Source of the DNA: Novipirellula aureliae
Lineage (GTDB): Bacteria; Planctomycetota; Planctomycetia; Pirellulales; Pirellulaceae
Reading direction: 5' to 3'
Length of the DNA: 64,000 nt
NCBI RefSeq assembly: GCF_007860185.1
Contig: NZ_SJPY01000001.1
Coordinates: 457,132 to 521,131 of the forward strand
Below, one piece after another: positions 1 through 47,630 of this stretch. The translations under genes and the position numbers were made by a program. The notes beneath the pieces were generated by a model, which was given only the letters and a program-made list of their open reading frames with translations, made no database searches and had not been told where the DNA came from. How positions within the stretch are numbered: position 1 is the stretch's first letter; each line of letters begins with the position of its first letter.

Positions 1-3000
1 GCCAAATCTTCGCAGGCGTTACCGAGCGACAGGTAGGCGGCATTGCCGTTCTCAACATCAACGATTTCCTTTTCAAGCATCTCACAAGCGTTGATGGCAC
101 TCGATCGAGCTACCAAGAGGGTTTCCTTACGAGTATCGGTTGGCCCAAGAAATGCCGCGCTGATTAAAATATTCGCGTGTCGCCAATAGGCGTCGTAAAG
201 CAATTCTCGGTAATCGTTTCGAGCCTCCAATTTTTCAATCGCGGTAGATAATTCATCCGCGGCGTTCTTCAATTCGGAATTGCTCGACAAGGTTCCCGAT
301 CGCAAATTCGCACGGTGATAATGCAAAAACGCCAACTGAATAGCAATCTCAGGACTGTCGGGCCATGTTTGGGTCGCCTTCGAAAGGTAAGCTTCCAGCA
401 GGTCCAATGTTTCATGATCGTAGACCTTCCTTGATGACTCGTGCAGCTCACGAGCGAATTCAGCAGCAAGCAACCAATACTTCGTCCGTTCATCGGGAGA
501 CTTGCCGAGATCACTAGCGGCAATCGCCGCACACATTTCAAGACATCTCAGTTTTTCTTTGAAAGGATATTCCGGATCCTCATCTTTGAAGTACACGTTG
601 GCATTGAGTGCGTGCAAACAGAATTTTTGGAGAACTTCTTTGTTGACGATGCTTGGAATGTCCCAGTCCGATCGATCCGATTTGCTACGCATAATCAGTC
701 GCTGAACCTGTTTCATTAGCGGAGTCAAAATCTGGCTAACCAAATCACGATCGTAAGAATTGGAACCAGCAATGCCAACGTCCAAAGCGGCAACGCCCGA
801 CCGCAACAACAGCGAGACACTTTGCCCGCGGGTCGATGTCGATGCCGCCTCGTTGAGATCCAGAGCGTACTCAAAAGCCGCACGGTAGAGTTGGGCATCA
901 CTCGAGACCGCTTTTCCGGTGGCAATGGAGCTCTCTAGCCGATCTTTAAAGGGCACCAATTGGGCCTTAATCGATGCATCATTCAAACTCTTATTCTGTA
1001 CCGAAAACTCAGCAATGTTCTTCAACAGTTTTTGAAGTCTCAGCTCAGCCCTGATGGTTCCAGAGTCGCTATTGTCACCTTCAAGCCACCACTGGGCTGG
1101 TTCGATATACTCAGCCCCCGCGAAACCACTGACAAAGCGGCGTTTGATAACGTCATCATCGGCAACCCCCGACGATTTGGTTGCGTAGGAGAGTAACGTT
1201 GACGCGATCCAAATACATCGGGTGGACCCCAGCTGTTCGCGAACGATGGCTGACGGATCACCTTCGCTAATGGATTTCCACGCGTTTGCTGCTTGTCGTG
1301 CATCATCATCCTGTTCCCCTAACAATCCCTTCAAGTAGTTTTGGTAGTGGTTGCTGACTAGCGACTCGTAGGGATGGAGGTCCGCTTGAAAGGATCTTTT
1401 TATGGAAGCAATTTCTGATCGGCTCAACGATCGATCTTGTAGCGTCGCATCCTCCAATTTGATGGCGGACTTGAAGAAGGCGTTGATGTTCAGCGGTTCA
1501 GAGGCATCCTGTTCCAAAACGCGGAAAAGGTCAGGATGGCGGAACGACTTAGGTCCATTAGCAACCGATGCCAGCAGCAGTAGTGTATCAAGTGCCGGTG
1601 GTCGTTTGGCTCGTGACGCATCGACAAGTAACTGGCTGGCCTGACAAAATACGATCGCTTCCTCGATACTCGCTGGAATCGGTTTCCGCAATCGCTGACC
1701 GATCATTTCGTCAAGCAAAGCTTCCATCGGTTGTTTGAAAAAATCATCATTGGAGCGATCCAATTTTTGAGACAATTCGGAAAAGAAGCGATCAGCATCA
1801 TCGGGACGATTCAAATTTTGAATCATTAGGTCAAAGATGGCCAACTTATTTCGAGTCGCTTCATCAAACTCATCTTGCTTTGGAAACTTGTTGTAAGCAG
1901 TTTCCAGTTCTTTCCAGTTCTTTTGTGACGCCAGTGTTTTCAAATTGCTGAGTTCGGCATCGCTATAAATGTTGGGCCATGTTTTGCCGATCACCAAGCG
2001 TTTTTCGTTATCGGTGTCATAAGCGGTGGTCAAATCGGGAAAAAATTTCTCAGACATCTGTTTCCACCGATTCAGACACCATGCCGGTAGTGAATCCTTA
2101 TCGGATTGATTGATAGCTTCTTGTGCGGATGCAATATCGTTTAAAGCCGGATCCTCCGTGTAGTGTCCTGGCTTGGCGTTGGGTACAAAATGCGTAAGCG
2201 CCAAAGCGGTCGCCGCGGTCGCGAACTGTTTTTCATCAGCGAACGTATCCGGCTGGTCGCGAAGCGACGAGCGAATTTGGTCCGCGATCGGTTCGTCGAC
2301 CGCTAAGTTCTCTAAGACGGCAAATTGAAGCTTCGCAGCCAAGAGCTTTGTTTTGAAGCTCAAGCCCTTTTCGGTGGCTCGATCGATGATTCGCTCCGGC
2401 CCGTCCTGGTAGGTCGCTTCGAGTCGCTGCAGATCGTCTTGGATGTATTGGTTCTTGTCACCTAAGCCGCCGAAAGCGACTTGATCCAAGATGCCATTCA
2501 ACCAGTCATCGCAGGCGTTCGACGCAAGCGTTTCAATCGATTGTTTTAGTTCAGGGTCGGAGAGCGTACTTGGCAGAGCACTTTGTGATTCCTCAATGAC
2601 TTTGCGCAGCGGATCGAGATGGAGAATGAATTTGTCGGATTCGTTGCTCGCTTGAAAACCCTTGAATTGCTCGAACGCATATTTTGCTTTTTCAAATCGG
2701 TCCTTGGCAATTTGGCCACCATCAAAACCGAAGAACGAATCGTAGGATCGACGATCCAAAGTTCGCCATGCCCACAAACCACCGCCTGTCGATGCAGCCA
2801 ACAAGATCGTTGCGACCAACAACTTCAGTGGAGTGATTCCACCCCGGCGGTCGACCCCGTTGGCGATTGCCAAAGCGTCGATAAAGTCGGTACAGGAAGG
2901 GAATCTTTTCATCGGATCCACCTCCATCGCCCGTCGCAACACTTTTCGTTCGGGACTCGCTAATTGGTTCAATTCCAACTTGCCGGTACATTTCGCAAGC

Positions 3001-3938
3001 GCGATGTTCGCCTCGGTCGTCATGTCAAAGGGCAATAGACCCGTACGAAGTTCGAAGTAGGTAATGGCTAACGAATACTGATCGACCGATCGACTATAGG
3101 TACGACCTTGCAACACCTCGGGTGCAGCATACGCGGGCGAAGCAAACGCTTGCCGCGTCGTGCGCATATCACCTTCGAACTTATGAGCGAGCCCAAAGTC
3201 ACACACCTGTGCTTCGCCGCCGACGAGCAAGATGTTTTGAGGTTTGATGTCACAGTGGTAAATGCTGTGTTCTTGATTGAGCAAATCGATCGCTCGAGCC
3301 GATGCGCGCAGATACCGAATCGTTTCCGCAGCATCGAGTCCATACGAAATATCGTTCGTTCCTACCGGTATGCCCGCTTCCACGCGAACTTGTTGTAAGC
3401 GGTCGTAAAGGGTGCAGTCGCCGAGCCCCATCACGACAATCAATTCTTCCGCCTTGGGTTGATCGCCTCCAAAAGGTGTGACGGTTTCCTTTGCTTCGGG
3501 TGGACGAAATTCACCTTGTGAACCAATTGCCATCGTCCCACTTGGCGGTTGTTGGGAAGGTGGTGACGGTGATGGTTGAGCGGGAGGATGAGTCGCGGGT
3601 GTTCGTTGGGCAGGTGATGGAAAAAAGAGACTGCTGTCGGGATTGATCGCTTCGGTCTCCCCTTCGGCCAACAATCGACCTTCGGAATCCTTGGTCCAAA
3701 AACCGTGAACCGGGCAAAGGTTGGGTTGCCGGACATTACGAAGGGTTCGCAGAGCGCTGAGTTCTTTGCGACCGCCCACTTTTTCGAGCGGTACGATTTT
3801 CAGGGCGACATGGGTCCCTCCTGCAGCTCGAGCAATCCATACCGAACCAGCCATACCGCTGCCAAGGGGGCGAACAAGAGTGTAGCCGGGAACGATCTCC
3901 TGGCCAGTTTGATATTGGTTTCTCTGCCCATGAAGCAT
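1..3938 (-). CDS. Ser/Thr protein kinase, membrane-anchored, 3' end outside window
   Basis: Eukaryotic-like protein kinase with a long extracytoplasmic or accessory tail. About 1,312 codons are visible and the frame is still open at base 1. The glycine loop PLGSGMAGSVW is at residues 24-34 and the ATP lysine is K47 (VALK). The catalytic loop HCDIKPQN has D230 and DFG has D247, so the kinase looks active. A Pro/Ser-rich insert of about 60 residues (roughly 100-160) interrupts the N-lobe/hinge region. One membrane helix lies at about 371-390 (LLVATILLAAS). The following 900 or more residues are helix-rich with no domain I recognise. ATG 3938 was chosen because AGGAG sits 9 nt upstream. Substrates are unknown. 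It stands alone, divergent from the Cys-rich gene at 4448. Confidence 0.9.
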   Translation of the reverse strand, partial: MLHGQRNQYQTGQEIVPGYTLVRPLGSGMAGSVWIARAAGGTHVALKIVPLEKVGGRKELSALRTLRNVRQPNLCPVHGFWTKDSEGRLLAEGETEAINPDSSLFFPSPAQRTPATHPPAQPSPSPPSQQPPSGTMAIGSQGEFRPPEAKETVTPFGGDQPKAEELIVVMGLGDCTLYDRLQQVRVEAGIPVGTNDISYGLDAAETIRYLRASARAIDLLNQEHSIYHCDIKPQNILLVGGEAQVCDFGLAHKFEGDMRTTRQAFASPAYAAPEVLQGRTYSRSVDQYSLAITYFELRTGLLPFDMTTEANIALAKCTGKLELNQLASPERKVLRRAMEVDPMKRFPSCTDFIDALAIANGVDRRGGITPLKLLVATILLAASTGGGLWAWRTLDRRSYDSFFGFDGGQIAKDRFEKAKYAFEQFKGFQASNESDKFILHLDPLRKVIEESQSALPSTLSDPELKQSIETLASNACDDWLNGILDQVAFGGLGDKNQYIQDDLQRLEATYQDGPERIIDRATEKGLSFKTKLLAAKLQFAVLENLAVDEPIADQIRSSLRDQPDTFADEKQFATAATALALTHFVPNAKPGHYTEDPALNDIASAQEAINQSDKDSLPAWCLNRWKQMSEKFFPDLTTAYDTDNEKRLVIGKTWPNIYSDAELSNLKTLASQKNWKELETAYNKFPKQDEFDEATRNKLAIFDLMIQNLNRPDDADRFFSELSQKLDRSNDDFFKQPMEALLDEMIGQRLRKPIPASIEEAIVFCQASQLLVDASRAKRPPALDTLLLLASVANGPKSFRHPDLFRVLEQDASEPLNINAFFKSAIKLEDATLQDRSLSRSEIASIKRSFQADLHPYESLVSNHYQNYLKGLLGEQDDDARQAANAWKSISEGDPSAIVREQLGSTRCIWIASTLLSYATKSSGVADDDVIKRRFVSGFAGAEYIEPAQWWLEGDNSDSGTIRAELRLQKLLKNIAEFSVQNKSLNDASIKAQLVPFKDRLESSIATGKAVSSDAQLYRAAFEYALDLNEAASTSTRGQSVSLLLRSGVAALDVGIAGSNSYDRDLVSQILTPLMKQVQRLIMRSKSDRSDWDIPSIVNKEVLQKFCLHALNANVYFKDEDPEYPFKEKLRCLEMCAAIAASDLGKSPDERTKYWLLAAEFARELHESSRKVYDHETLDLLEAYLSKATQTWPDSPEIAIQLAFLHYHRANLRSGTLSSNSELKNAADELSTAIEKLEARNDYRELLYDAYWRHANILISAAFLGPTDTRKETLLVARSSAINACEMLEKEIVDVENGNAAYLSLGNACEDL

Positions 3939-3947
3939 TTGGGCGTT

Positions 3948-3952
3948 CTCCT
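3948..3952 (-). promoter_or_regulatory. Shine-Dalgarno of the kinase gene
   Basis: AGGAG on the minus strand, 9 nt before ATG 3938. It fixes that start over the upstream in-frame GTG. Confidence 0.7.
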
Positions 3953-4447
3953 GCGAATAGGACACTCGTGTGGAGGGTACCAGTCTTGGATTGACACCCC
4001 ACGTTAATGATCTAGTGTACCGCATTGGAGGGGGCGTCAAGTGACCAAGTGATTGTGAATCACCTAGGCTCCATCCGGCGCGCCCATGACCCGCAGGATC
4101 GAAAAAATAAAATGAATTCTTTTGACTCGCTTGAGTTGCCGCCTTTCATCCATTTTATTTCGATGTCCTGCGCTTAGAAGCCGTCAATTTCAACGCTGCG
4201 GGTGAGTGTGCGATCGGGAATCCAGAATCATGACTGAGCCGTCGGCTGAGCTGCAAGTCTTGGGACTTCTTTCGGAATTCTGAAATTCCCAAGGATTTTT
4301 CGGTTGCCCCGGATTGGGGGGCAACCTAGGGTTCTTCAGTTTTGTGAACACGTTGGTTGTGTTCGCGGGATCGATTGATGCACGTCTTGACTTGCATCAA
4401 GACCCACCCCAACCCAATAAACATCCTTTGCTGGAGTTTCCGCTCAA
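3953..4447. other. Divergent intergenic region with hairpins
   Basis: This is the roughly 500 bp between the minus-strand kinase and the plus-strand Cys-rich gene, so it must hold both promoters. I see no convincing -35/-10 pair. The arms GGTTGCCCC (4302-4310) and GGGGCAACC (4318-4326) form a perfect 9-bp stem with a 7-nt loop, about 120 bp before the start of the Cys-rich gene. A weaker inverted repeat (CTTGGGA...TCCCAAG) lies just upstream. There is no T-run, so a leader structure or operator is as likely as a terminator. Confidence 0.4.
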
Positions 4448-5284
4448 ATGTCCTACCGATCAATCAAAGCAACCGCTTTCATTCTAACCATCCTTCTAAC
4501 TGGACCCGTTTCCTGGGCAGGTGGGCTTTGCAACAAGTGCAAGGGCACTGGATGTTGTGAAGAGATGGTCACTGAAACATGTACCGTCATGAAAACCGTG
4601 ACCGAAACTTGCTACCGCGAAGAACAACAAGTCAAAGTCATTCAAGTGCCAAAGGTCATTCAAGTCGAAAAACTTGTTCCATACGAATACACCGCTTGGG
4701 TTCGCGTCAAGAAAGAAGACCCACAAGAGATTGAAATCAAGACTCCAAAATTCCGCTGGGTCGATCAAGAATACACGATCAACGTACCCGGTAAAGATAC
4801 GGTCACCAAGATCCGCAAGCGAACGGAATTGGTTCCAACGATCAAGTATTGTACCGTTAGCGAAGATCATGGATGCTGGGAAACCAAAATGGTGGCAACC
4901 GAGACTTGTGGTGGATGCTTGTGCTGTGAAAAAAGAGTTTGGTGTCCCAATATCGTCCAAGTGACAAAAGAGACCACGGTGATGGAAAAGGTTTGTGTCG
5001 AAGAACCTTATACTTGTGAAGTCGCGATCTGTGTACCGATCAAGAAGACTCGCCGAGTAAAAGAGTACTTTACAAAGACGGAAAAGAAGGTCATCAAGAA
5101 CCCCTACTGGACGCTCGAACCACGCAAGCGTACCAAGATGGTTACCGCTTGTGTCCCTGAAACCGTCTACGAAGAAAAGACAGAAATTTGTACGGTGAAA
5201 GTGCCTTACAAAATCGAAAAGCAAGTTCCATGCACCGTCACACGCCAAGTACCCAAAGAATGCCCTTGTGCATGCCAAGGCTAG
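4448..5284 (+). CDS. Secreted cysteine-rich protein, YTV-like envelope protein candidate
   Basis: 278 aa. The N-terminus SIKATAFILTILLTG...WAGG is a signal peptide. The mature part has about 22 cysteines and repeated short Val/Thr/Lys/Pro stretches (VPYEYTAWV, VTETC, PYTCEVAICVP, VPYKIEKQVPC, CTVTRQVPKECPC). This layout resembles the planctomycete YTV class of Cys-rich wall-associated proteins, which are thought to be disulfide-crosslinked; the assignment is inference from composition and motif rhythm. The first cysteines (CNKCKGTGCC) resemble a zinc-knuckle or DnaJ-type CxxCxGxG spacing. A repeat element (5310-5431) follows directly. No catalytic residues are evident, so a structural role is most likely. 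Confidence 0.75.
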   Translation: MSYRSIKATAFILTILLTGPVSWAGGLCNKCKGTGCCEEMVTETCTVMKTVTETCYREEQQVKVIQVPKVIQVEKLVPYEYTAWVRVKKEDPQEIEIKTPKFRWVDQEYTINVPGKDTVTKIRKRTELVPTIKYCTVSEDHGCWETKMVATETCGGCLCCEKRVWCPNIVQVTKETTVMEKVCVEEPYTCEVAICVPIKKTRRVKEYFTKTEKKVIKNPYWTLEPRKRTKMVTACVPETVYEEKTEICTVKVPYKIEKQVPCTVTRQVPKECPCACQG

Positions 5285-5309
5285 CTTTTATTGAGGCATC
5301 AATCATAGC

Positions 5310-5431
5310 GTAGTGGATCTTGTCAAAGATCCTGACCATAGCGTAGTGGATCTTATTAAAGATCCTGACCATAGCGTAATGGATCTTGTTAAAGATCCTG
5401 ACGCATGGGGATCTTTAACAAGATCCACTAC
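5310..5431. repeat. GTAGTGGATCTTGTTAAAGATCC-type palindromic repeat cluster
   Basis: Three direct copies of GTAGTGGATCTTGTTAAAG/ATCC-like units start near 5310, 5343 and 5376. An inverted copy (GGATCTTTAACAAGATCC, 5409-5426, then ACTAC) follows. Each unit is itself a hairpin (GGATCTT/AAGATCC) and the whole cluster can fold into a longer one. It lies between the Cys-rich gene and the converging aminotransferase gene, where it could also stop transcription. Related copies lie at 28218, 29860 and 47578. Confidence 0.85.
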
Positions 5432-5472
5432 TCTTTTACCTTCCCTTTGTGGATCTGGCGGTTCCCGAATTT

Positions 5473-6894
5473 TCAACTCATCGAGAGTTTCCACTTTTGG
5501 AGTGCTTTGTCAAGTAATTCGATCGCGGCATCAATGTGTTCATGGGTCGTGATCGTCGGTGGCGGCAGGAATCGGATACGAGTAGGATTGGATCCGCAAA
5601 CGAACCCTAACAAGCCTACCTCGTACATGATATCCAGCAAAGCCTTAGCGTGTTCAAAGCTGCCGTCACCTGGGGTAAAGACAAGCATCATCACTTCACC
5701 AAATGGACCTTGCATCTGTTTGGGGTATTTTTCAGATAGCTCCGTCAACTTTTCTGCAAAATAGCGACTTCGCTTCACGTTCGTTCCCTCAGCTCCGAAG
5801 CAACCGTTTGCTTCCAGCGCGTCGAGGGTAGCGAGACCCGCCGCAATCGACGCGGACGCTCCGGTGAACGTTTGACTTAGCACCGGACCCTTTGGTACAA
5901 AATCTTTGCCGTAGAGCGTTGCACAAACCTGTGTAATTTTTCCAACCGTCACGATATCGGCAAACTCATCGAGTTTGTAATGTTGGAACGCAAATGGTCT
6001 TGTAGTACGAGAGAAGGTTTGAATTTCATCGAAGATGATAGGGATGCCTGCTTCGCGAAGTGGGACGCAAAGCGCTTTGAAGAAATCATGACTGCCAGGA
6101 TAGTAGCCGCCTTCTCCTGCAATCGGTTCCGCCCAAAATGCGGCGTATCGACCGGGGTGACGTTTTAACAATCGATGCAATTCGTCAACGGCGCACTGCC
6201 GACTGAGCTCGGGATTTGTGGCACTACGAAATGGCAAATAGTCGACTTGTAACGCGAGTGGTAAACCGATGCGGTAATTTGGACGATCGGTCAGTGCAGC
6301 CAAGGCCAACGAACGGCCTGCAAAGGCATTGTCAAAAGCAAGGATTCGATCGGCCGGGGCCTTGTGATGGAGTGCAATCTTCAGTGCGTTCTCGTTCGCC
6401 ATCGCACCACTTGTCGATAGCAAACAATGATCCAATCGGGCACCACTGCTGCTGGCCATCGAGATTAACCGTTCGCACATTTCGACCGTTGGTGGATGTT
6501 GTTGCAAGTTACCTTGCATCACGGTGTCCTCGAGTGCTCCGTCGATGGCAGCGTCAATGATATTGGGATGGCTGTGCCCGCATCCATGGACACCAATCCC
6601 GCCGATCATATCGAGCTTGACACTGCCGTCTGCCAATTCGACATAGAGTTCGTGTCCGAGCCCCGATGATAAGTAGGGCCAAATGGGTGCTCCACCGCGA
6701 ACGGTTTGGAGTCGCTCGAGCAATCGCTCGTACTGCGGACGTAGGGGCTCACTCGGCCCCCGAACATGGTCGAGTTGAGCACCATGATCGGAAACCGCCT
6801 CAGCGATCAAGCGTTTGGCCTCTGCAATTCGAGGGTCGCGACGCAGCGAATCCGCATGAGTGGAAGTATGAGTTGCTGATTGAGATTGAACCAC
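5473..6894 (-). CDS. Class III PLP-dependent aminotransferase
   Basis: 473 aa, fold type I. The cofactor-binding features are STSGAMANENALKIA (phosphate cup), FDEIQTF with the conserved Asp that contacts the pyridine nitrogen, and TVGKI with the likely Schiff-base lysine. Length and order fit the acetylornithine/ornithine/4-aminobutyrate/lysine aminotransferase group. The substrate cannot be told from sequence. The start is GTG 6894, with GGAG 9 nt upstream (CGGAGctttgcagg). The gene stands alone between the Cys-rich gene and fliA, so context gives no pathway. The N-terminal 50 residues are longer and more divergent than in typical ArgD. Confidence 0.88.
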   Translation of the reverse strand: MVQSQSATHTSTHADSLRRDPRIAEAKRLIAEAVSDHGAQLDHVRGPSEPLRPQYERLLERLQTVRGGAPIWPYLSSGLGHELYVELADGSVKLDMIGGIGVHGCGHSHPNIIDAAIDGALEDTVMQGNLQQHPPTVEMCERLISMASSSGARLDHCLLSTSGAMANENALKIALHHKAPADRILAFDNAFAGRSLALAALTDRPNYRIGLPLALQVDYLPFRSATNPELSRQCAVDELHRLLKRHPGRYAAFWAEPIAGEGGYYPGSHDFFKALCVPLREAGIPIIFDEIQTFSRTTRPFAFQHYKLDEFADIVTVGKITQVCATLYGKDFVPKGPVLSQTFTGASASIAAGLATLDALEANGCFGAEGTNVKRSRYFAEKLTELSEKYPKQMQGPFGEVMMLVFTPGDGSFEHAKALLDIMYEVGLLGFVCGSNPTRIRFLPPPTITTHEHIDAAIELLDKALQKWKLSMS

Positions 6895-14523: not shown

Positions 14524-14940
14524 GTAGCAGCGTCTCTCCGAGACGCTGAATTTACAAATCGTAGCCGCGTCTCTCCGAGACGTTGAATTTACGAATCGTA
14601 GCAGCGTCTCTCCGAGACGCAGAATTACGAATCGTAGCCGCGTCTCTCCGAGACGTTGAATTACGAATCGTAGCAGCGTCTCTCCGAGACGCTGAATTAC
14701 GAGTCGTAGCAGCGTCTCTCCGAGACGCTGAGTTACGAATCGTAGCCGCGTCTCTCCGAGACGTTGAATTACGAGTCGTAGCAGCGTCTCTCCGAGACGT
14801 TGAATTACGAATCGTAGCCGCGTCTCTCCGAGACGTTGAATTACGAATCGTAGCAGCGTCTCTCCGAGACGCTGAATTACGAATCGTAGCAGCGTCTCTC
14901 CGAGACGCTGAATTTACGAGTCTCGGAGAGACTCGGCTAC
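14524..14940. repeat. Array of 11 palindromic 36-bp repeats (GCGTCTCTCCGAGACGC core)
   Basis: Eleven head-to-tail units of 36-37 bp, each with GTAGC(A/C)GCGTCTCTCC, then GAGACG(C/T)TGAATTAC and GA(A/G)TC. The core GCGTCTC-TCC-GAGACGC is a hairpin. The last unit is followed by an inverted partial copy (TCTCGGAGAGACTCGGCTAC, 14921-14940). The whole unit is conserved, with no variable spacers. The array fills the gap between the divergent rlmI-like and fdxA genes, just before the fdxA start. Open frames within it (VAASLRD...) are a by-product of the period being a multiple of three. Confidence 0.95.
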
Positions 14941-23922: not shown

Positions 23923-24179
23923 GTAGGCGAGTCTCTCCGAGACTCGAAACATTGAGTGTCTAGTAGGCGAGTCTCTCCGAGACTCAAAACATTCAGCGTC
24001 TAGTAGGCGAGTCTCTCCGAGACTCGAAAGATTGAGTGTCTAGTAGGCGAGTTTCTCCGAGACTCAAAACATTCAGCGTCTAGTAGGCGAGTTTCTCCGA
24101 GACTCAAAACATTCAGCGTCTAGTAGGCGAGTCTCTCCGAGACTCGAAACATTCAGCGTCTCGGAGATACGCTGCTACG
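23923..24179. repeat. Six 40-bp palindromic repeats (GAGTCTCTCCGAGACTC core)
   Basis: Six units of 40 bp of the form GTAGGCGAG(T)CTCTCC, GAGACTC, then (G/A)AAACATT(C/G)AG(C/T)GTCTA. The core is a 7-bp stem with loop TCC. The last unit ends in an inverted partial copy (GCGTCTCGGAGATACGC). It is the same class as the array at 14524, with GAGTCTC replacing GCGTCTC. It lies downstream of the second Hsp70 gene. Confidence 0.93.
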
Positions 24180-28217: not shown

Positions 28218-28300
28218 GTAGTGGGTCTGCGTAGTGGATCTGCGTAGTGGATCTTGATAAAGATCCTTGTTCCATGGGGATCTTTAACAAGATCCACTAT
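28218..28300. repeat. GTAGTGGATC-type palindromic repeat downstream of ccoP
   Basis: Two short (GTAGTGG(A/G)TCTGC) and one full GTAGTGGATCTTGATAAAG unit, then the inverted GGGGATCTTTAACAAGATCC. Same family as 5310, 29860 and 47578. Confidence 0.85.
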
Positions 28301-29859: not shown

Positions 29860-29913
29860 GTAGTGGATCTTGTTAAGGATCCCTCATCGCAAGGGATCTT
29901 TCGCAAGATCCAC
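29860..29913. repeat. GTAGTGGATC-type palindromic repeat between ccoG and fixH
   Basis: GTAGTGGATCTTGTTAAGG followed by the inverted half GGATCTTTCGCAAGATCC. Same family as 5310, 28218 and 47578. Confidence 0.85.
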
Positions 29914-36545: not shown

Positions 36546-38375
36546 ATGAACCGCACGGCCCGAACCATTTTCCGCTTTAGTACCGTTGGTACGCTCACGT
36601 TAATCTTGGGCATCAGCCCGGCATCGGCAGGCTGGCTTCTACATCATATGCGATGTGGCTCACGTGCCAACGAGTGCTGCGAGCCGATTGTATGTTGCCC
36701 TCCTGCACCGGTATGCTGTCCAGCACCGGTCGTTTGCTGTCCCCCGCCCGTCGTTGGCAATTCCTGTGATTACGGCGTGGTTGACATGGGTGTGGTCGAT
36801 TATGGAGCTGTCGATAGGAGCATGGCAGTACCGAGTGGCGAAGTGATTTACGATTCTCAGCCGCTGCCATCCGCTCCTTCACAAGAGAGTGAGATTCCGT
36901 CCAACCAGCAAAATGAATTTGAAAGTTCTAGCGACAGCGATTCGGCTCCACCATCGCCTTTCGAAGAGCAAGCGGCTCAATCCGAGACGCCTGCGGACAA
37001 TACGGAAATGGAAGCTTCGGCCACAGAGCCGGACGTAGATCCGGAAACGGACTCGCCTTCGTCTCCATCGACCGAAGAACCGGCGGCGGATGATTTGTTT
37101 GGCGGTGCTGAGATGGAAGTTGAGCCCGAAATGGAAAGCCCTTCGCTGGACGAACCGGTCGCGGAGCCAGACAATTCTGATGACCTATTCGGCAATCCAC
37201 CTGCGGATGAGATGCCCGAATCCGTCATGCCCGAAACCGAGATGCCCGAAGCTGAGATGCCTGAAACCGAGATGCCTGAAACCGAGATGCCCGAAGCGGA
37301 GATGCCCGAAGCGGAGATGCCTGAATCCGTCATGCCCGAGCCCGTCATGCCCGAACCTGCGTTTCCTGAATCGGAAGGTGACAGCGGCATGGATGACTTG
37401 TTCGGCAACCCAGCCGACAACGAGGCACCGGCAAACAGCGGTGGCTCGGATGATTTGTTCGGCGATCCCCCCGCTGGAAATGAAGCCCCAGCCGACGGCG
37501 GTGGCATGGACGATTTGTTCGGCGATCCCCCCGCTGGAAATGAAGCCCCAGCCGACGGCGGTGGCATGGACGATTTGTTCGGCGATCCCCCCGCTGGAAA
37601 TGAAGCCCCAACCGATGGCGGTGGCATGGACGATTTGTTCGGCGATCCGCCTGCTGGAAATGAAGTCCCAACCGATGGCGGTGGCATGGACGATTTGTTC
37701 GGCGATCCGCCTGCTGGAAATGAAGCCCCAGCCGACGGCGGTGGCATGGACGATTTGTTCGGCGATCCGCCTGCAGTCGAAGAAGTTCCAACCGATGGCG
37801 GTGGCATGGACGATTTGTTCGGTGATCCGCCTGCAGTCGAAGAAGTTCCAACCGATGGCGGTGGCATGGACGATTTGTTCGGTGATCCGCCTGCAGTCGA
37901 AGAAGTCCCAACCGATGGCGGTGGCCTGGACGATTTGTTCGGTGATCCACCCGCCGTCGAAGAAGCACCAGCCGATGGCGGTGTGGACGACCTATTTGGA
38001 ATGCCGACGTCAAGCGATGATTCCGGTGACTTCGACGATCTATTTGGTCGGAGCGACCGTGAAGCCGATTCAGACCAAATGACTCAACGAGACTCGCGTC
38101 GTATGGGTGAGAGATTGGTTGTCACTGAAAAGCAATTTCCGCCTCACTTCTCGCTGCAAGAAACCTCGGTGCGAGTTTGGATCGACAACACCTCCACCTT
38201 CCGAACCGAAGGTCGTTTGATTGAAATTTATGATGGTTTCGTACGCTTGCGAAAGACCAACGGAAAGACTTGCTCGGTTCCAATGTCACGAATGTGCGAT
38301 GCGGACCGTGCATATGTTGAATCGATCAAAAACCAGATCGAAACGTCACGCGTAGCGATGTTGACTAGCAAGTAA
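36546..38375 (+). CDS. Secreted repeat protein with Cys-rich N-terminus, DDLFG repeats and SHD1 domain
   Basis: 609 aa. A signal peptide (about 1-28, ...ILGISPASAG) is followed by a Cys/Pro segment (ECCEPIVCCPPAPVCCPA). Next is an acidic Ser/Glu/Pro region with a five-residue MPE(S/T/A/P)xM repeat (about 217-275), then nine near-identical 20-residue units beginning DDLFGDPP. DDLFG occurs 14 times in all. The C-terminus (about 541-605, VRVWIDNTSTFRTEGRLIEI, DGFVRLRKTNGK, PMSRMCDADRAYV) is an SHD1 domain (SLA1 homology domain 1), known from planctomycete and eukaryotic proteins; in yeast Sla1 it binds NPFxD endocytic signals. The repeats may be spacer or ligands for such a domain. Function unknown. 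Confidence 0.85.
   Translation: MNRTARTIFRFSTVGTLTLILGISPASAGWLLHHMRCGSRANECCEPIVCCPPAPVCCPAPVVCCPPPVVGNSCDYGVVDMGVVDYGAVDRSMAVPSGEVIYDSQPLPSAPSQESEIPSNQQNEFESSSDSDSAPPSPFEEQAAQSETPADNTEMEASATEPDVDPETDSPSSPSTEEPAADDLFGGAEMEVEPEMESPSLDEPVAEPDNSDDLFGNPPADEMPESVMPETEMPEAEMPETEMPETEMPEAEMPEAEMPESVMPEPVMPEPAFPESEGDSGMDDLFGNPADNEAPANSGGSDDLFGDPPAGNEAPADGGGMDDLFGDPPAGNEAPADGGGMDDLFGDPPAGNEAPTDGGGMDDLFGDPPAGNEVPTDGGGMDDLFGDPPAGNEAPADGGGMDDLFGDPPAVEEVPTDGGGMDDLFGDPPAVEEVPTDGGGMDDLFGDPPAVEEVPTDGGGLDDLFGDPPAVEEAPADGGVDDLFGMPTSSDDSGDFDDLFGRSDREADSDQMTQRDSRRMGERLVVTEKQFPPHFSLQETSVRVWIDNTSTFRTEGRLIEIYDGFVRLRKTNGKTCSVPMSRMCDADRAYVESIKNQIETSRVAMLTSK
37441..37980 (+). repeat. Nine 60-bp tandem repeats inside the SHD1 protein gene
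   Basis: Exact 60-bp period encoding 20-aa units (DDLFGDPPAGNEAPADGGGM and variants). Copies fall in two subtypes, (A)GNEAP/VP in the first five and (A)VEEVP in the last four, suggesting stepwise duplication. Antisense frames across it are artefacts. Confidence 0.95.
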
Positions 38376-43988: not shown

Positions 43989-46900
43989 TCATGTGCTGGT
44001 AGGCGTGGAAACGGACTCAGGTGTTGCTTGCTCGGTTGCGAGCGGGACCAGTAATTCGGATCGTTGTTTGGCAACTTCATATTCCAATTGCGCCCGTGCC
44101 ACATCCGCTTGCTGCTCGCGCTTGACCAAATGGTCGTAGACTTCGCCTGACATCACCCGGTCGGTTTCCTGCAACAACTCGGGGTCGTAGGTAAGTCCAG
44201 GAAACGTTTGTGCCGACGTATACTTATTGAGCGAGACATTCTGTTTTCGCAGTTCGGATTCGGTCTGCTCGATCAACTTGTCCGCCAAATCACGAGCCGC
44301 TCCTTGCGGCACTTTGTTCTTCGCGGTTCCAAATGGATCGTAGTCATCGGGTGCCGTCCATTTGTCCCACCAAGTCATTTTCTGGCCGAAGATGCTAGCG
44401 CTGATCCGATCCACCCGATTGACCATGTACTTTGATACCGCACGACTGCGTTTGAACAACGCGGTTGGAATGAACAACGAATCCCAGATCGTTTTGCTCC
44501 GCCAAGCCATGTAGTGAATGTTGCCTAGCAAATCAATCAAGAGTCCGATCGATGCTTCGTTCTCTTTCATTTGCTGGAACGTGACCCCGTAGTTGAGCGA
44601 CCGTTCGGCGAGATAATTCAGTTTGGGCATCAGCGGGCGCACGCCACCGAGTCCCCAGGTTCGGCAGGTTCGTGCCACGTGTTGTTCGTTATAAAGATCG
44701 ACTAAAATCGAGTCGATCAATTCGTGCCCGATTTGCTTGATCTCGTCATTGGTCAATGGCCGATCGATGTAATGTTCGTTGAATCGAGGAAAGGTTCGCT
44801 CGCTGACCAATCGAATAAAGCGATCGACCTTGTCTTCGAATTTCAACGCTAAGAAAATACCGTGCTTGTTTTGTTCGCTGTTGATGAAGTCCTCATCGGC
44901 CACCGCGATCGCGTCGGCTTCAAACAGGACGGCTGAGCCTTTACTCGAATCGAGAGTACGGCGGACTTCTAGTTTTCCGACTTTCCGTTTTCGAAAAAAT
45001 CCCCATGACGTATCGGTATCGCCAGTGTCATAGCGGTGAACGATGACCCAGCGATGTAGCGGATCAACCTTTGTCAATTTCCGTTGTAAATCACGTGCTT
45101 CATTGACAAGCCACCGAGCATCGGGTTGGAACAAAAAAGTTCGTTTGTCGATTGGGAATTCGTGAACGCTGCCAAGAGCGGCAGCGGCAACGTCGGCCGC
45201 ACCACTGGTCACCCCGCCGACCACCTCTCCACTACGGGCGACGTATTTCGATAGTTTCTTGATCCGTTTGATAAATGCCTTTTGCGTCTTCAACCCACTC
45301 GGCGATTTTTCGTCGCTGATCGGAATCAGTGAGGTTTCGAGTAATTTTTCACCACCCGTACGTGAATCGCCGACGACGTAGAACGAGATGTTGAAGTCGG
45401 CTGCCGCGCGTAAGAACTGAGACTTGGCCAATTGGTTGAACGCGGTTGTCTTTCCTGCTGCGGTAAAGTAATAGTTGTTGGGGATGATGACGGTCATCCC
45501 CGCCCAATCCTCTAAGATCGATTTGTCTTCGTTGACTTTGCGGACCAGATCCAAAAAACCGTAATAGGCAACATCCCAAACATCCAAGCCGCTACCGAAA
45601 TAGTCAGCCAATTGCGTCCATTTTTGGATGTCATCGACATCGGTTTTTTGGTTCGCGATCAACAGGAAACGCGATCCTTCGTCGCGGCGATAGATTTCCG
45701 ACACACGGATCGTTTCACGTCGGTAATCGATTCGTCGGTACTGGTCATGTCGATCACTCGATTGAGGGCGTTGGGCGTGCAAGTCGACGCCGAGTACGAA
45801 CGCTTGATAGGCGATCACGTCGCCTGAGTCTCGAATGCCAATGCGCGTTTCGATCCAACGCGTTTCACCTGGGGCCAAATTGCGAACGGCATGCCGGAAT
45901 TCTTGCTCGAGTAAATCGCAAGGACGATCGGCATCGTCGAAAAAGAGCAATTGCCCGAGATCGACGTCGCCGCCGAGCAACCGAGCACCGGTTTGCACAC
46001 TGCGGAAGGTCAATGCATCGTCAAACGTTTCGCTACTGACGTTGGTGATTCCGTAACGAACGCGAGTCGATTCGCCTGGCGCTAGACTGTTGAGCGCGAT
46101 CACGTCGGTCAACTCGATCGGGAATCGCACCTCGACGATTTCAGCGTTTTCAAAATTGCGAAAGGGTCGATGGATACCACTTTCCATAAACGCCACGGGG
46201 CTTATCGGATGGTCGAGTGTGAATCCGCGTTTGCGAGGTCCTGAGACAATCACGTCCGCCAATCGAAGGCGAAGCCCCGCATCGGAAAAGGTGTACGATT
46301 CATTCGGCGCAAGCGAGCGTGGTAAGACCAAGTCGATCTCGTCGCAAAGTAACCAATCGTCGGATGGCAAAAAGGTACGGATGGAGTAGTTTGGCGGTGT
46401 TGGCATGCCACCACAATTGCGCACCGTGACATTATCAACGCTGACCAAAGAGTCGGGTTCGAGAATCTCGTATTCGCTAGCGATATCGAATGAGACAAGT
46501 TCCAAATCGTAGGGGGCATCGTATTGCTGTTTCGATCCGTTTGCATGATGGACGACGATTGATAGTTTCCCATCATTGCCGCTGCGTCCATCGAGGGCTC
46601 GGCGTCGTGACGGAGCGCCATTTCGTCCGCTTGGCCCTGAAAAGCCGCCGGGGTTGCTGCGCATGACGGTTCGCGTTCGCCGCTTGCCCTGCGAATCGGT
46701 GTAGGACTGTGTTTCGGTCCAGTGGTAGCTATTGCCGCCGGGACCACCGGGACCGCCCGGGCCGCCCTTTGCTGGTTCACCGGCAAAGCCCAGGTCGCCC
46801 CCCGAGAGGTCACCTTTCATCAGCATGAGAAGGCCCAGGTTCTCCGCCTCGACGACTACCGTGATTTGTCCGCCATCGCCGCCAACCTCGCCATCGGTAG

Positions 46901-47456
46901 GGTTACCGGCATCACCACCGTCACCGCCCGGACCACCGTTACCGCCGCGGCTGTAGCGGGTGGCGTTGCGTCCTTTGTGTCCGCGAGCTCCCGGTTGCCC
47001 GTCGCCACCGCGTCCGCCACTGCCCGCCCGCCCGCCGGTCGCATCGATAAAGATGTAGCCTGAATCACCGATCGGGTGTGACGCTTCGATCGGTTGCCGG
47101 GAATGGCCAGGGGTCACCGCCGAACCAGAGATCGCGACGACACCACGATCGCGAGAATTTCCGCTGTAGCCAATCTCGATCGTTGCCGATGCCGCACTCT
47201 TTCCCGGTTTCGCTGGCGTTGCATCTTCGCCGTCGCGGCCATCCGCACCTGGACGGCGCACCGGATCGAAAAAACTGCGTCCGTCGATGCCATCCGCTCC
47301 GTCATCGCCCGCCAAATCGAAATGCAATAGACACTCGCGTTCGGCATCCGAATGAAAGGCACCCGAGTCGGATTGGTTTGCATTCGCAGCGGGCGGGCCC
47401 GGATGGTCGGGTGATTTCAGCAAATCTCGGAGCTGGTTGTGACGAGAAGTGTTCAT
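43989..47456 (-). CDS. Very large collagen-like protein of unknown function
   Basis: 1,155 aa, no signal peptide or membrane helix seen. The N-terminal part (about 45-300) has patches of collagen-like Gly-X-Y sequence (GDDGADGIDG, GGRGGDGQPGARGHKG, GGPGGPGGPGGN). Two beta-sandwich-looking regions (about 300-580) follow. The C-terminal half (about 580-1155) is alpha/beta and unrecognised (LIANQKTDVDDIQKW, MTVIIPNNYYFTAAGKT, FYVVGDSRTGGEKLL), ending in a charged coiled coil. ATG 47456 was taken because the stretch before it runs to a TTG with no Shine-Dalgarno. Proteins of this plan with a 'DUF7932'-like region occur in planctomycetes from memory; that is not checked. It stands alone. Confidence 0.75.
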   Translation of the reverse strand: MNTSRHNQLRDLLKSPDHPGPPAANANQSDSGAFHSDAERECLLHFDLAGDDGADGIDGRSFFDPVRRPGADGRDGEDATPAKPGKSAASATIEIGYSGNSRDRGVVAISGSAVTPGHSRQPIEASHPIGDSGYIFIDATGGRAGSGGRGGDGQPGARGHKGRNATRYSRGGNGGPGGDGGDAGNPTDGEVGGDGGQITVVVEAENLGLLMLMKGDLSGGDLGFAGEPAKGGPGGPGGPGGNSYHWTETQSYTDSQGKRRTRTVMRSNPGGFSGPSGRNGAPSRRRALDGRSGNDGKLSIVVHHANGSKQQYDAPYDLELVSFDIASEYEILEPDSLVSVDNVTVRNCGGMPTPPNYSIRTFLPSDDWLLCDEIDLVLPRSLAPNESYTFSDAGLRLRLADVIVSGPRKRGFTLDHPISPVAFMESGIHRPFRNFENAEIVEVRFPIELTDVIALNSLAPGESTRVRYGITNVSSETFDDALTFRSVQTGARLLGGDVDLGQLLFFDDADRPCDLLEQEFRHAVRNLAPGETRWIETRIGIRDSGDVIAYQAFVLGVDLHAQRPQSSDRHDQYRRIDYRRETIRVSEIYRRDEGSRFLLIANQKTDVDDIQKWTQLADYFGSGLDVWDVAYYGFLDLVRKVNEDKSILEDWAGMTVIIPNNYYFTAAGKTTAFNQLAKSQFLRAAADFNISFYVVGDSRTGGEKLLETSLIPISDEKSPSGLKTQKAFIKRIKKLSKYVARSGEVVGGVTSGAADVAAAALGSVHEFPIDKRTFLFQPDARWLVNEARDLQRKLTKVDPLHRWVIVHRYDTGDTDTSWGFFRKRKVGKLEVRRTLDSSKGSAVLFEADAIAVADEDFINSEQNKHGIFLALKFEDKVDRFIRLVSERTFPRFNEHYIDRPLTNDEIKQIGHELIDSILVDLYNEQHVARTCRTWGLGGVRPLMPKLNYLAERSLNYGVTFQQMKENEASIGLLIDLLGNIHYMAWRSKTIWDSLFIPTALFKRSRAVSKYMVNRVDRISASIFGQKMTWWDKWTAPDDYDPFGTAKNKVPQGAARDLADKLIEQTESELRKQNVSLNKYTSAQTFPGLTYDPELLQETDRVMSGEVYDHLVKREQQADVARAQLEYEVAKQRSELLVPLATEQATPESVSTPTST

Positions 47457-47577: not shown

Positions 47578-47630
47578 GTAGTGGATCTCGTTAAAGATCC
47601 CCATGCGGAAGGATCTCTAACAAGATCCAC
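47578..47630. repeat. GTAGTGGATC-type palindromic repeat
   Basis: GTAGTGGATCTCGTTAAAG then the inverted GGATCTCTAACAAGATCC. Same family as 5310, 28218 and 29860. Confidence 0.85.

What the first reader, a model, noticed from the sequence alone, without database searches (positions are those of the whole stretch)
43989..47456. Giant collagen-like protein with an unknown alpha/beta half
Gly-X-Y patches combined with a long uncharacterised C-terminal half, no export signal, and a monocistronic setting. It might be a large intracellular or non-classically exported machine.
Basis: partly seen in the sequence, partly recalled or inferred. Interest (0 to 1): 0.6.

Follow-up and report, generated by a model that had tools for sequence, protein, structure and literature searches.

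The report
Conserved glycine-rich, non-collagen multidomain protein
A planctomycete gene that looks like collagen encodes instead a conserved, probably intracellular, folded multi-part protein whose second half matches no known family, with relatives in a second bacterial phylum and, for the first half, in a giant virus.

Summary
The gene is real: one ATG-started ORF, window 43989-47456 (-), 1155 aa, monocistronic, single copy. It is probably not collagen. Residues 40-305 hold short Gly-X-Y patches (longest run 6 triplets) whose glycine positions are conserved. In a model of the N half (pLDDT 80.7) the Gly-rich blocks carry no DSSP class, which fits a polyproline-II (Obg- or snow-flea-antifreeze-like) bundle; dihedrals could not be measured. 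The only Pfam match is DUF7932 (residues 317-445), within an Ig-like region. The C half (586-1155) matched no Pfam, NCBIfam, PHROGs or PADLOC family credibly and no PDB sequence; its model is poor (pLDDT 51.6), and profile comparisons with TIR, caspase and receiver domains showed no relation. C-half matches occur in 12 of 149 sampled genomes of the family (own and one divergent copy included); full-length relatives occur in another planctomycete family and in the phylum of a 'Polyangia' genome. The N half also matches a 1137-aa giant-virus protein by structure. Both halves are under purifying selection. Best reading: a cytosolic docking rod (PPII-like domain plus Ig domains) joined to an alpha/beta-helical regulatory or catalytic half. 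Biochemical function is inferred.

The parts
43989..47456 (-). whole gene, 1155 aa plus stop, ATG start
   Evidence: start supported by L002 and L003
46542..47339 (-). residues 40-305: Gly-rich domain, beta-strands with probable polyproline-II segments between them
   Evidence: model (strands at protein residues 42-47, 90-97, 134-138, 198-203, 244-253, 298-303; Gly-rich stretch 140-189 without DSSP class, block pLDDT 95, 89, 63, 79, 94); 46 conserved Gly columns; PPII state inferred, dihedrals not measured
46122..46508 (-). residues 317-445: DUF7932 (PF25560), beta-sandwich in the model
   Evidence: E 8.6e-12, 46 bits against cut-off 27, profile positions 1-130 of 130
45702..46121 (-). residues 446-585: second Ig-like beta-sandwich
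   Evidence: C3b: Z 10.1, rmsd 3.0, 112 aligned over protein residues 403-585; fold only
45312..45701 (-). residues 586-715: alpha/beta lobe A with W627 invariant in 19 of 19
   Evidence: low-confidence model; conservation
44841..45167 (-). residues 764-872: second conserved core B (R802 and G827 invariant in 19 of 19, E830 in 16 of 19)
   Evidence: fold not established
43992..44840 (-). residues 873-1155: mostly helical part and variable tail (E924 invariant in 19 of 19)
   Evidence: low-confidence model

Best explanation
Shown: an intact, single-copy, monocistronic gene for one member of a family of roughly 1,000-1,200-residue proteins that align from the Gly-rich domain to the helical part in two bacterial phyla. 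Modelled: the N half is a Gly-rich domain of beta-strands and probable polyproline-II segments, followed by two Ig-like sandwiches, the first being DUF7932; the C half is an alpha/beta lobe, a second conserved core and helices, with no recognisable family. Inferred: the protein stays in the cytosol; the rigid N half is a rod that docks on a large partner or polymer, as the Gly-rich PPII domain of Obg docks on the ribosome; the C half binds a ligand or partner and is the regulatory or catalytic output. It is not a collagen fibre.
For: DUF7932 match over the whole profile. N-half model pLDDT 80.7, pTM 0.56, with strands between Gly-rich segments and Ig-like fold matches. Conserved glycine columns and W246, T247, R262, V302. 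PPII bundles of this composition exist in Obg, snow-flea antifreeze protein and other unrelated proteins, and Obg's binds the large ribosomal subunit (passages of PMC8409303). No leader or TM segment by hydropathy. dN/dS about 0.06 (L017/L020) and 0.11 (L018/L004), similar in both halves.
Against: No sequence relation of the Gly-rich domain to Obg (hhalign probability 4.4%; 5.4%). PPII state not measured. pTM 0.56 means that the placing of domains is uncertain. C-half model poor (pLDDT 51.6). Two distant relatives (L024, L027) seem to have a hydrophobic leader, so location may differ within the family. No partner, ligand or expression evidence. No conserved neighbour gene that would name a pathway.
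Confidence: 0.4

Rival explanations
1. The C half is an enzyme of a fold family not in the libraries, and the N half only places it. Candidate active-site residues are R802, E830 and E924 near W627.
For: Two conserved alpha/beta-type cores and a helical part aligned across phyla; W627, R802, G827 and E924 invariant in 19 of 19; C-half dN not higher than N-half dN.
Against: No cluster of invariant His, Cys, Asp or Lys: K876 is kept in 17 of 19, E830 in 16, D628 is replaced in several distant members. No family or PDB sequence match.
Confidence: 0.25
2. A protein exported by a non-classical route, or delivered into prey or protists, with the C half as effector.
For: Family found in the phylum of a Polyangia genome (predators are common there, recalled) and, for the N half, in Mimiviridae viruses of protists; possible leaders in L024 and L027, by eye.
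Against: No leader in the window protein; no secretion genes named beside it; no neighbour conserved throughout.
Confidence: 0.12
3. A TIR- or caspase-like immune effector: lobe A would be a diverged TIR or caspase domain.
For: Weak fold hits to BcThsB (E 0.50) and SPARTA TIR-APAZ (E 0.17), to caspase-1 (Z 5.2), and a caspase sequence hit (E 0.81).
Against: hhalign of lobe A with TIR 0.4% and caspase 0.5%, no better than the receiver control at 0.5%; the model is of low confidence; PADLOC shows nothing. The known families scored only 0.2-3.5% against each other, so the test cannot exclude a remote common fold.
Confidence: 0.08
4. A collagen-like fibre or adhesin, as the title of the finding implies.
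For: Gly-X-Y patches; some published bacterial collagen-like proteins have few repeats (Bucl2 3-19; passages of PMC4565658).
Against: No PF01391 match at E<=10; glycine positions fixed between phyla, while repeat numbers of collagen-like regions vary between strains; strands between the Gly blocks; no leader or anchor by hydropathy.
Confidence: 0.05

Closest known systems
DUF7932 (Pfam PF25560), uncharacterised
   Same: Residues 317-445 match the whole profile above the curated cut-off; so do 8 of 9 other relatives scanned and 9 of 9.
   Different: The Pfam model covers 130 of 1155 residues; the Gly-rich domain and the C half are outside it.
Gly-rich PPII domain of Obg GTPase (PF01018)
   Same: Gly-rich segments alternating with strands, probable PPII (model; passages of PMC8409303).
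   Different: No sequence relation (4.4% and 5.4%); no PF01018 or GTPase match listed.
Bacterial collagen-like proteins (PF01391)
   Same: Gly-X-Y patches.
   Different: Short, interrupted and position-fixed; no PF01391 match.
Terrestrivirus sp. DUF7932 protein A0A3G4ZNF8 (Mimiviridae, Klosneuvirinae)
   Same: N-half structure: Foldseek E 1.5e-39, TM-score 0.66 on the query, 573 columns, 23% identity; similar total length, 1137 aa (lineage).
   Different: rmsd 8.3 over the whole alignment; its C half was not compared, and no DNA of it was found in viral contigs.

Membership tests
DUF7932 (PF25560) | profile score above the curated cut-off of 27 bits | tested here: met
   46 bits, E 8.6e-12, positions 1-130 of 130
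Bacterial collagen-like proteins | match to the collagen repeat family PF01391 | tested here: not met
   only DUF7932 listed at E<=10
Bacterial collagen-like proteins | continuous Gly-X-Y repeat | tested here: not met
   patches only; longest run 6 triplets, 68 of 2000 shuffles reach it; 8 triplets in each of 8 orthologues
Bacterial collagen-like proteins | trimeric triple helix | not testable with these tools
   needs circular dichroism or a structure
Obg / PF01018 | sequence relation of the Gly-rich domain to the Obg N-domain | tested here: not met
   hhalign 4.4% and 5.4%, against 13 Obg sequences of relatives
Gly-rich PPII-bundle proteins (structural class) | bundle of left-handed PPII helices | tested here: inconclusive
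   confident Gly-rich blocks without DSSP class; no dihedrals; fold searches barely tested residues 30-315
Ig-like beta-sandwich (fold only) | structural match of residues 403-585 | tested here: met
   C3b: Z 10.1, rmsd 3.0, 112 aligned; a common fold, shows no function
TIR, caspase (C14) or receiver domain | profile relation of lobe A or core B | tested here: not met
   six hhalign comparisons, 0.2 to 0.5%; profiles of 23, 22 and 18 sequences
TIR, caspase (C14) or receiver domain | structural match of lobe A | tested here: inconclusive
   poor model; weak hits only
Sec-exported protein | N-terminal signal peptide or TM segment | tested here: not met
   hydropathy only; SignalP not available

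The most novel reading that the evidence does not exclude
An unstudied cytosolic machine shared by bacteria of two phyla and giant viruses of protists: an independently evolved PPII-bundle docking domain and Ig rod, joined to an alpha/beta-helical enzyme of new fold, used in encounters between microbes and protists.
Probability: 0.1. Interest if true: 0.75.

Novelty: new variant of a known kind. Interest (0 to 1): 0.4.

Why it matters
About 1,100 residues that align across two bacterial phyla, with a structural relative of the N half in a Mimiviridae virus, have as their only annotation a 130-residue family of unknown function. The Gly-rich part may be a further, independently evolved PPII-bundle fold that passes for 'collagen-like' by eye, which would warn against that label elsewhere. 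The C half is a clear target for structure determination.

Tried and rejected
Collagen reading: rejected. Obg homology of the Gly-rich domain: my first idea; hhalign 4.4% and 5.4%, kept only as an analogy. TIR, caspase and receiver origin of lobe A: no relation found. Lobe A against core B: 4.7%, no evidence of duplication; DUF7932 against the second Ig-like domain: the 18.7% hit only joins the overlapping ends of the two excerpts. Operon partners: besides genomes of one genus, what is shared is small: one 137-139-aa gene directly upstream in L019 and L021, two neighbours shared by the window and L030, and a family of roughly 500-aa genes near the orthologue in 5 loci (L015, L016, L017, L019, L020), which has two copies in three of these and which I therefore did not count. 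Protein-kinase-like ORFs lie in the flanks of several loci (mutual similarity; only the window's was checked with Pfam); such kinases are common in these bacteria (recalled), so I did not count this either. Weak names at chance level or under the cut-off: PRK10515 (E 0.15), F1 capsule anchor (E 0.22), DUF3786 (2 of 9 members, E 0.0034) and four more, Ras-like SRP receptor beta (E 1.3). Promoter scan: 1 site, on the other strand, against 3.0 expected; 9 terminator-like sites against 4.9 expected, none used. Dropped: the match in G072 (E 7.5e-4, two stops inside); the four matches below Pfam's cut-off, of which G569 (L079) gave no A1-profile match and the other three were not fetched. From the 19-row alignment I left out L025, L027 and L082 (cut or split), L022/L032 and the other near copies; L075, L078 and L026 in it lack the N-terminus. 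No relative of the window protein in plasmids, phages or viral contigs. Papers PMC7159879 and PMC8195603: passages only, nothing on this family.

Full report
Observation. The ORF at 43989-47456 (-) is intact, 1155 aa from ATG. The same-genus copies L002 and L003 begin at the aligned ATG. Neighbours are convergent below (ends 43907; PF00483 and ManC_GMP_beta-helix, that is mannose-1-phosphate guanylyltransferase-like) and divergent above (starts 47698, no Pfam match), so the gene stands alone. One match was found in its own genome.

Is it collagen? The longest Gly-X-Y run is 6 triplets; 68 of 2000 shuffles of residues 30-305 reach this, so run length proves little; in the 8 orthologues of that call the longest run is 8. 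Pfam's collagen family is not among the matches up to E 10. The glycines sit in fixed columns: of 55 columns in residues 40-305 that are identical in at least 17 of 19 sequences, 46 are glycine, and S243, W246, T247, R262 and V302 are held in 17 or 18. Published collagen-like regions vary in repeat number between strains, though some have as few as three repeats (passages of PMC4565658).

Structure. The N half (residues 30-585, 9 sequences) was modelled with mean pLDDT 80.7 and pTM 0.56. The 10-residue blocks of the Gly-rich stretch 140-189 have means 95, 89, 63, 79 and 94 and no DSSP class, and strands lie between the Gly-rich segments. This is what a Gly-rich polyproline-II bundle would look like; such bundles occur in unrelated proteins and are overlooked by common assignment programs (passages of PMC8409303). 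I could not measure dihedral angles, and the fold searches barely tested residues 30-315, so this remains an inference. Residues 317-445 are DUF7932. Residues 403-585 match complement C3b and other Ig-like sandwiches (Z 10.1, rmsd 3.0, 112 residues), a common fold that shows no function. The C half (575-1155) was modelled poorly (pLDDT 51.6, pTM 0.41): an alpha/beta lobe at about 592-700 and helices from about 863 are suggested. No PDB chain matched with E<=0.001; VIA-align gave at best Z 7.5 (helices) and 6.1 (lobe), below the level the tool calls meaningful.

The C half. Nothing credible in Pfam, NCBIfam, PHROGs or PADLOC and no PDB sequence relative. Because the weak fold hits included TIR, caspase and receiver domains, I built profiles of these from genomes of the same bacterial family (23, 22 and 18 sequences) and compared them with lobe A and core B (19 sequences each). 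All six probabilities were 0.5% or lower. The three known families also scored low against each other (0.2 to 3.5%), so this test excludes only near relation.

Family and distribution. Orthologues at 55-77% identity occur in Rhodopirellula, Rubripirellula and allied genomes. In 98 relatives, 7 gave a match, own genome and one chance match included. A sample of the family gave a C-half match in 12 of 149 genomes, own included; one, G801, is divergent. DUF7932 was found in 5 of 392 genomes sampled from the phylum, own included, and in 0 of 14 control genomes, and in 13 of 282 (9 above cut-off) of the phylum of G482, whose record is titled 'Polyangia bacterium' (phylum Myxococcota is recalled). 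Of 17 loci examined, 16 held an open frame matching the full-length profile, 13 of these over 1,000 aa. The twelve distant rows of the alignment are 25-31% identical to the window. The tree sets the window's clade apart (support 1.00), with G801's copy outside it. One distant member (L023) has an N-terminal zinc finger weakly like Prok-RING_1 (E 0.0048, below cut-off). In the viral structure library the best match of the N half by far is a 1137-aa DUF7932 protein of Terrestrivirus sp. (E 1.5e-39, TM 0.66, 573 columns, 23% identity; next match 4.4e-05); LCMiAC02 has a weaker one (E 0.02, 24% identity, 256 columns). Terrestrivirus belongs to the Klosneuvirinae, Mimiviridae and comes from forest soil (abstract in the listing; passages of PMC6243002). 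Three scans of viral contigs returned no relative.

Constraint. dN/dS is about 0.06 for L017/L020 and 0.11 for L018/L004, slightly lower in the C half; for the window against L003 and L014 dS is saturated. The Gly-rich domain is the part most conserved over distance (36% mean identity of the distant rows to the window, against 22% for lobe A and 26% for core B; glycine accounts for much of it).

Mechanism. There is no gene conserved beside it throughout, no leader by hydropathy and no invariant catalytic cluster: in the C half only W627, R802, G827 and E924 are invariant in 19 of 19. I commit to a cytosolic docking rod with a regulatory or catalytic C half. Shown: gene, family, conservation, DUF7932. 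Modelled: PPII-like and Ig-like N half. Inferred: location, docking, output. The enzyme reading is close behind.

Known or new. It is a member of DUF7932 by Pfam's criterion; it is not a member of the collagen-like or Obg families by the tests made. 'DUF7932' does not occur in the held library of papers (0 papers); searches for collagen-like or glycine-rich proteins of planctomycetes and myxobacteria and for a giant-virus link showed nothing on this family in their listings. Hence 'new variant of a known kind': Pfam knows the middle domain, but I found no description of the whole architecture.

Noticed in passing
window 47581-47630; also 5313-5428, 28247-28297, 29863-29913: A near-palindromic 20-base intergenic repeat (GTGGATCTTGTTAAAGATCC type), mostly as facing pairs about 30 bases apart, one pair just upstream of the gene: 10 matches in the window (0 in shuffles) and 463 in the genome (219 + 244; control 0).
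   Followed up: partly
window 14524-14919 and 23923-24161: Tandem arrays with related units: 36 bases x 10.9 and 40 bases x 6.0, both containing a CTCTCCGAGA core.
   Followed up: no
window 36546-38375: Protein with an SHD1 domain (E 8.1e-15), a 60-base x 9.1 tandem repeat inside the gene and a sub-cut-off match to nucleoporin FG repeats (E 6.3e-06).
   Followed up: no
L023 residues 45-77 of ORF 230-3691 (+): A distant relative carries an N-terminal zinc finger weakly like Prok-RING_1 (E 0.0048, below cut-off), unlike the window protein.
   Followed up: no
L080 (G801), ORF 2933-6424 (-): A genome of the window's own family has a divergent copy (29% identity) that falls outside the window's clade, which suggests transfer or old paralogy.
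   Followed up: partly
L019 7467-7877 and L021 7534-7950: A small gene (137-139 aa, 67% identical) sits directly upstream of the orthologue in these two loci.
   Followed up: no
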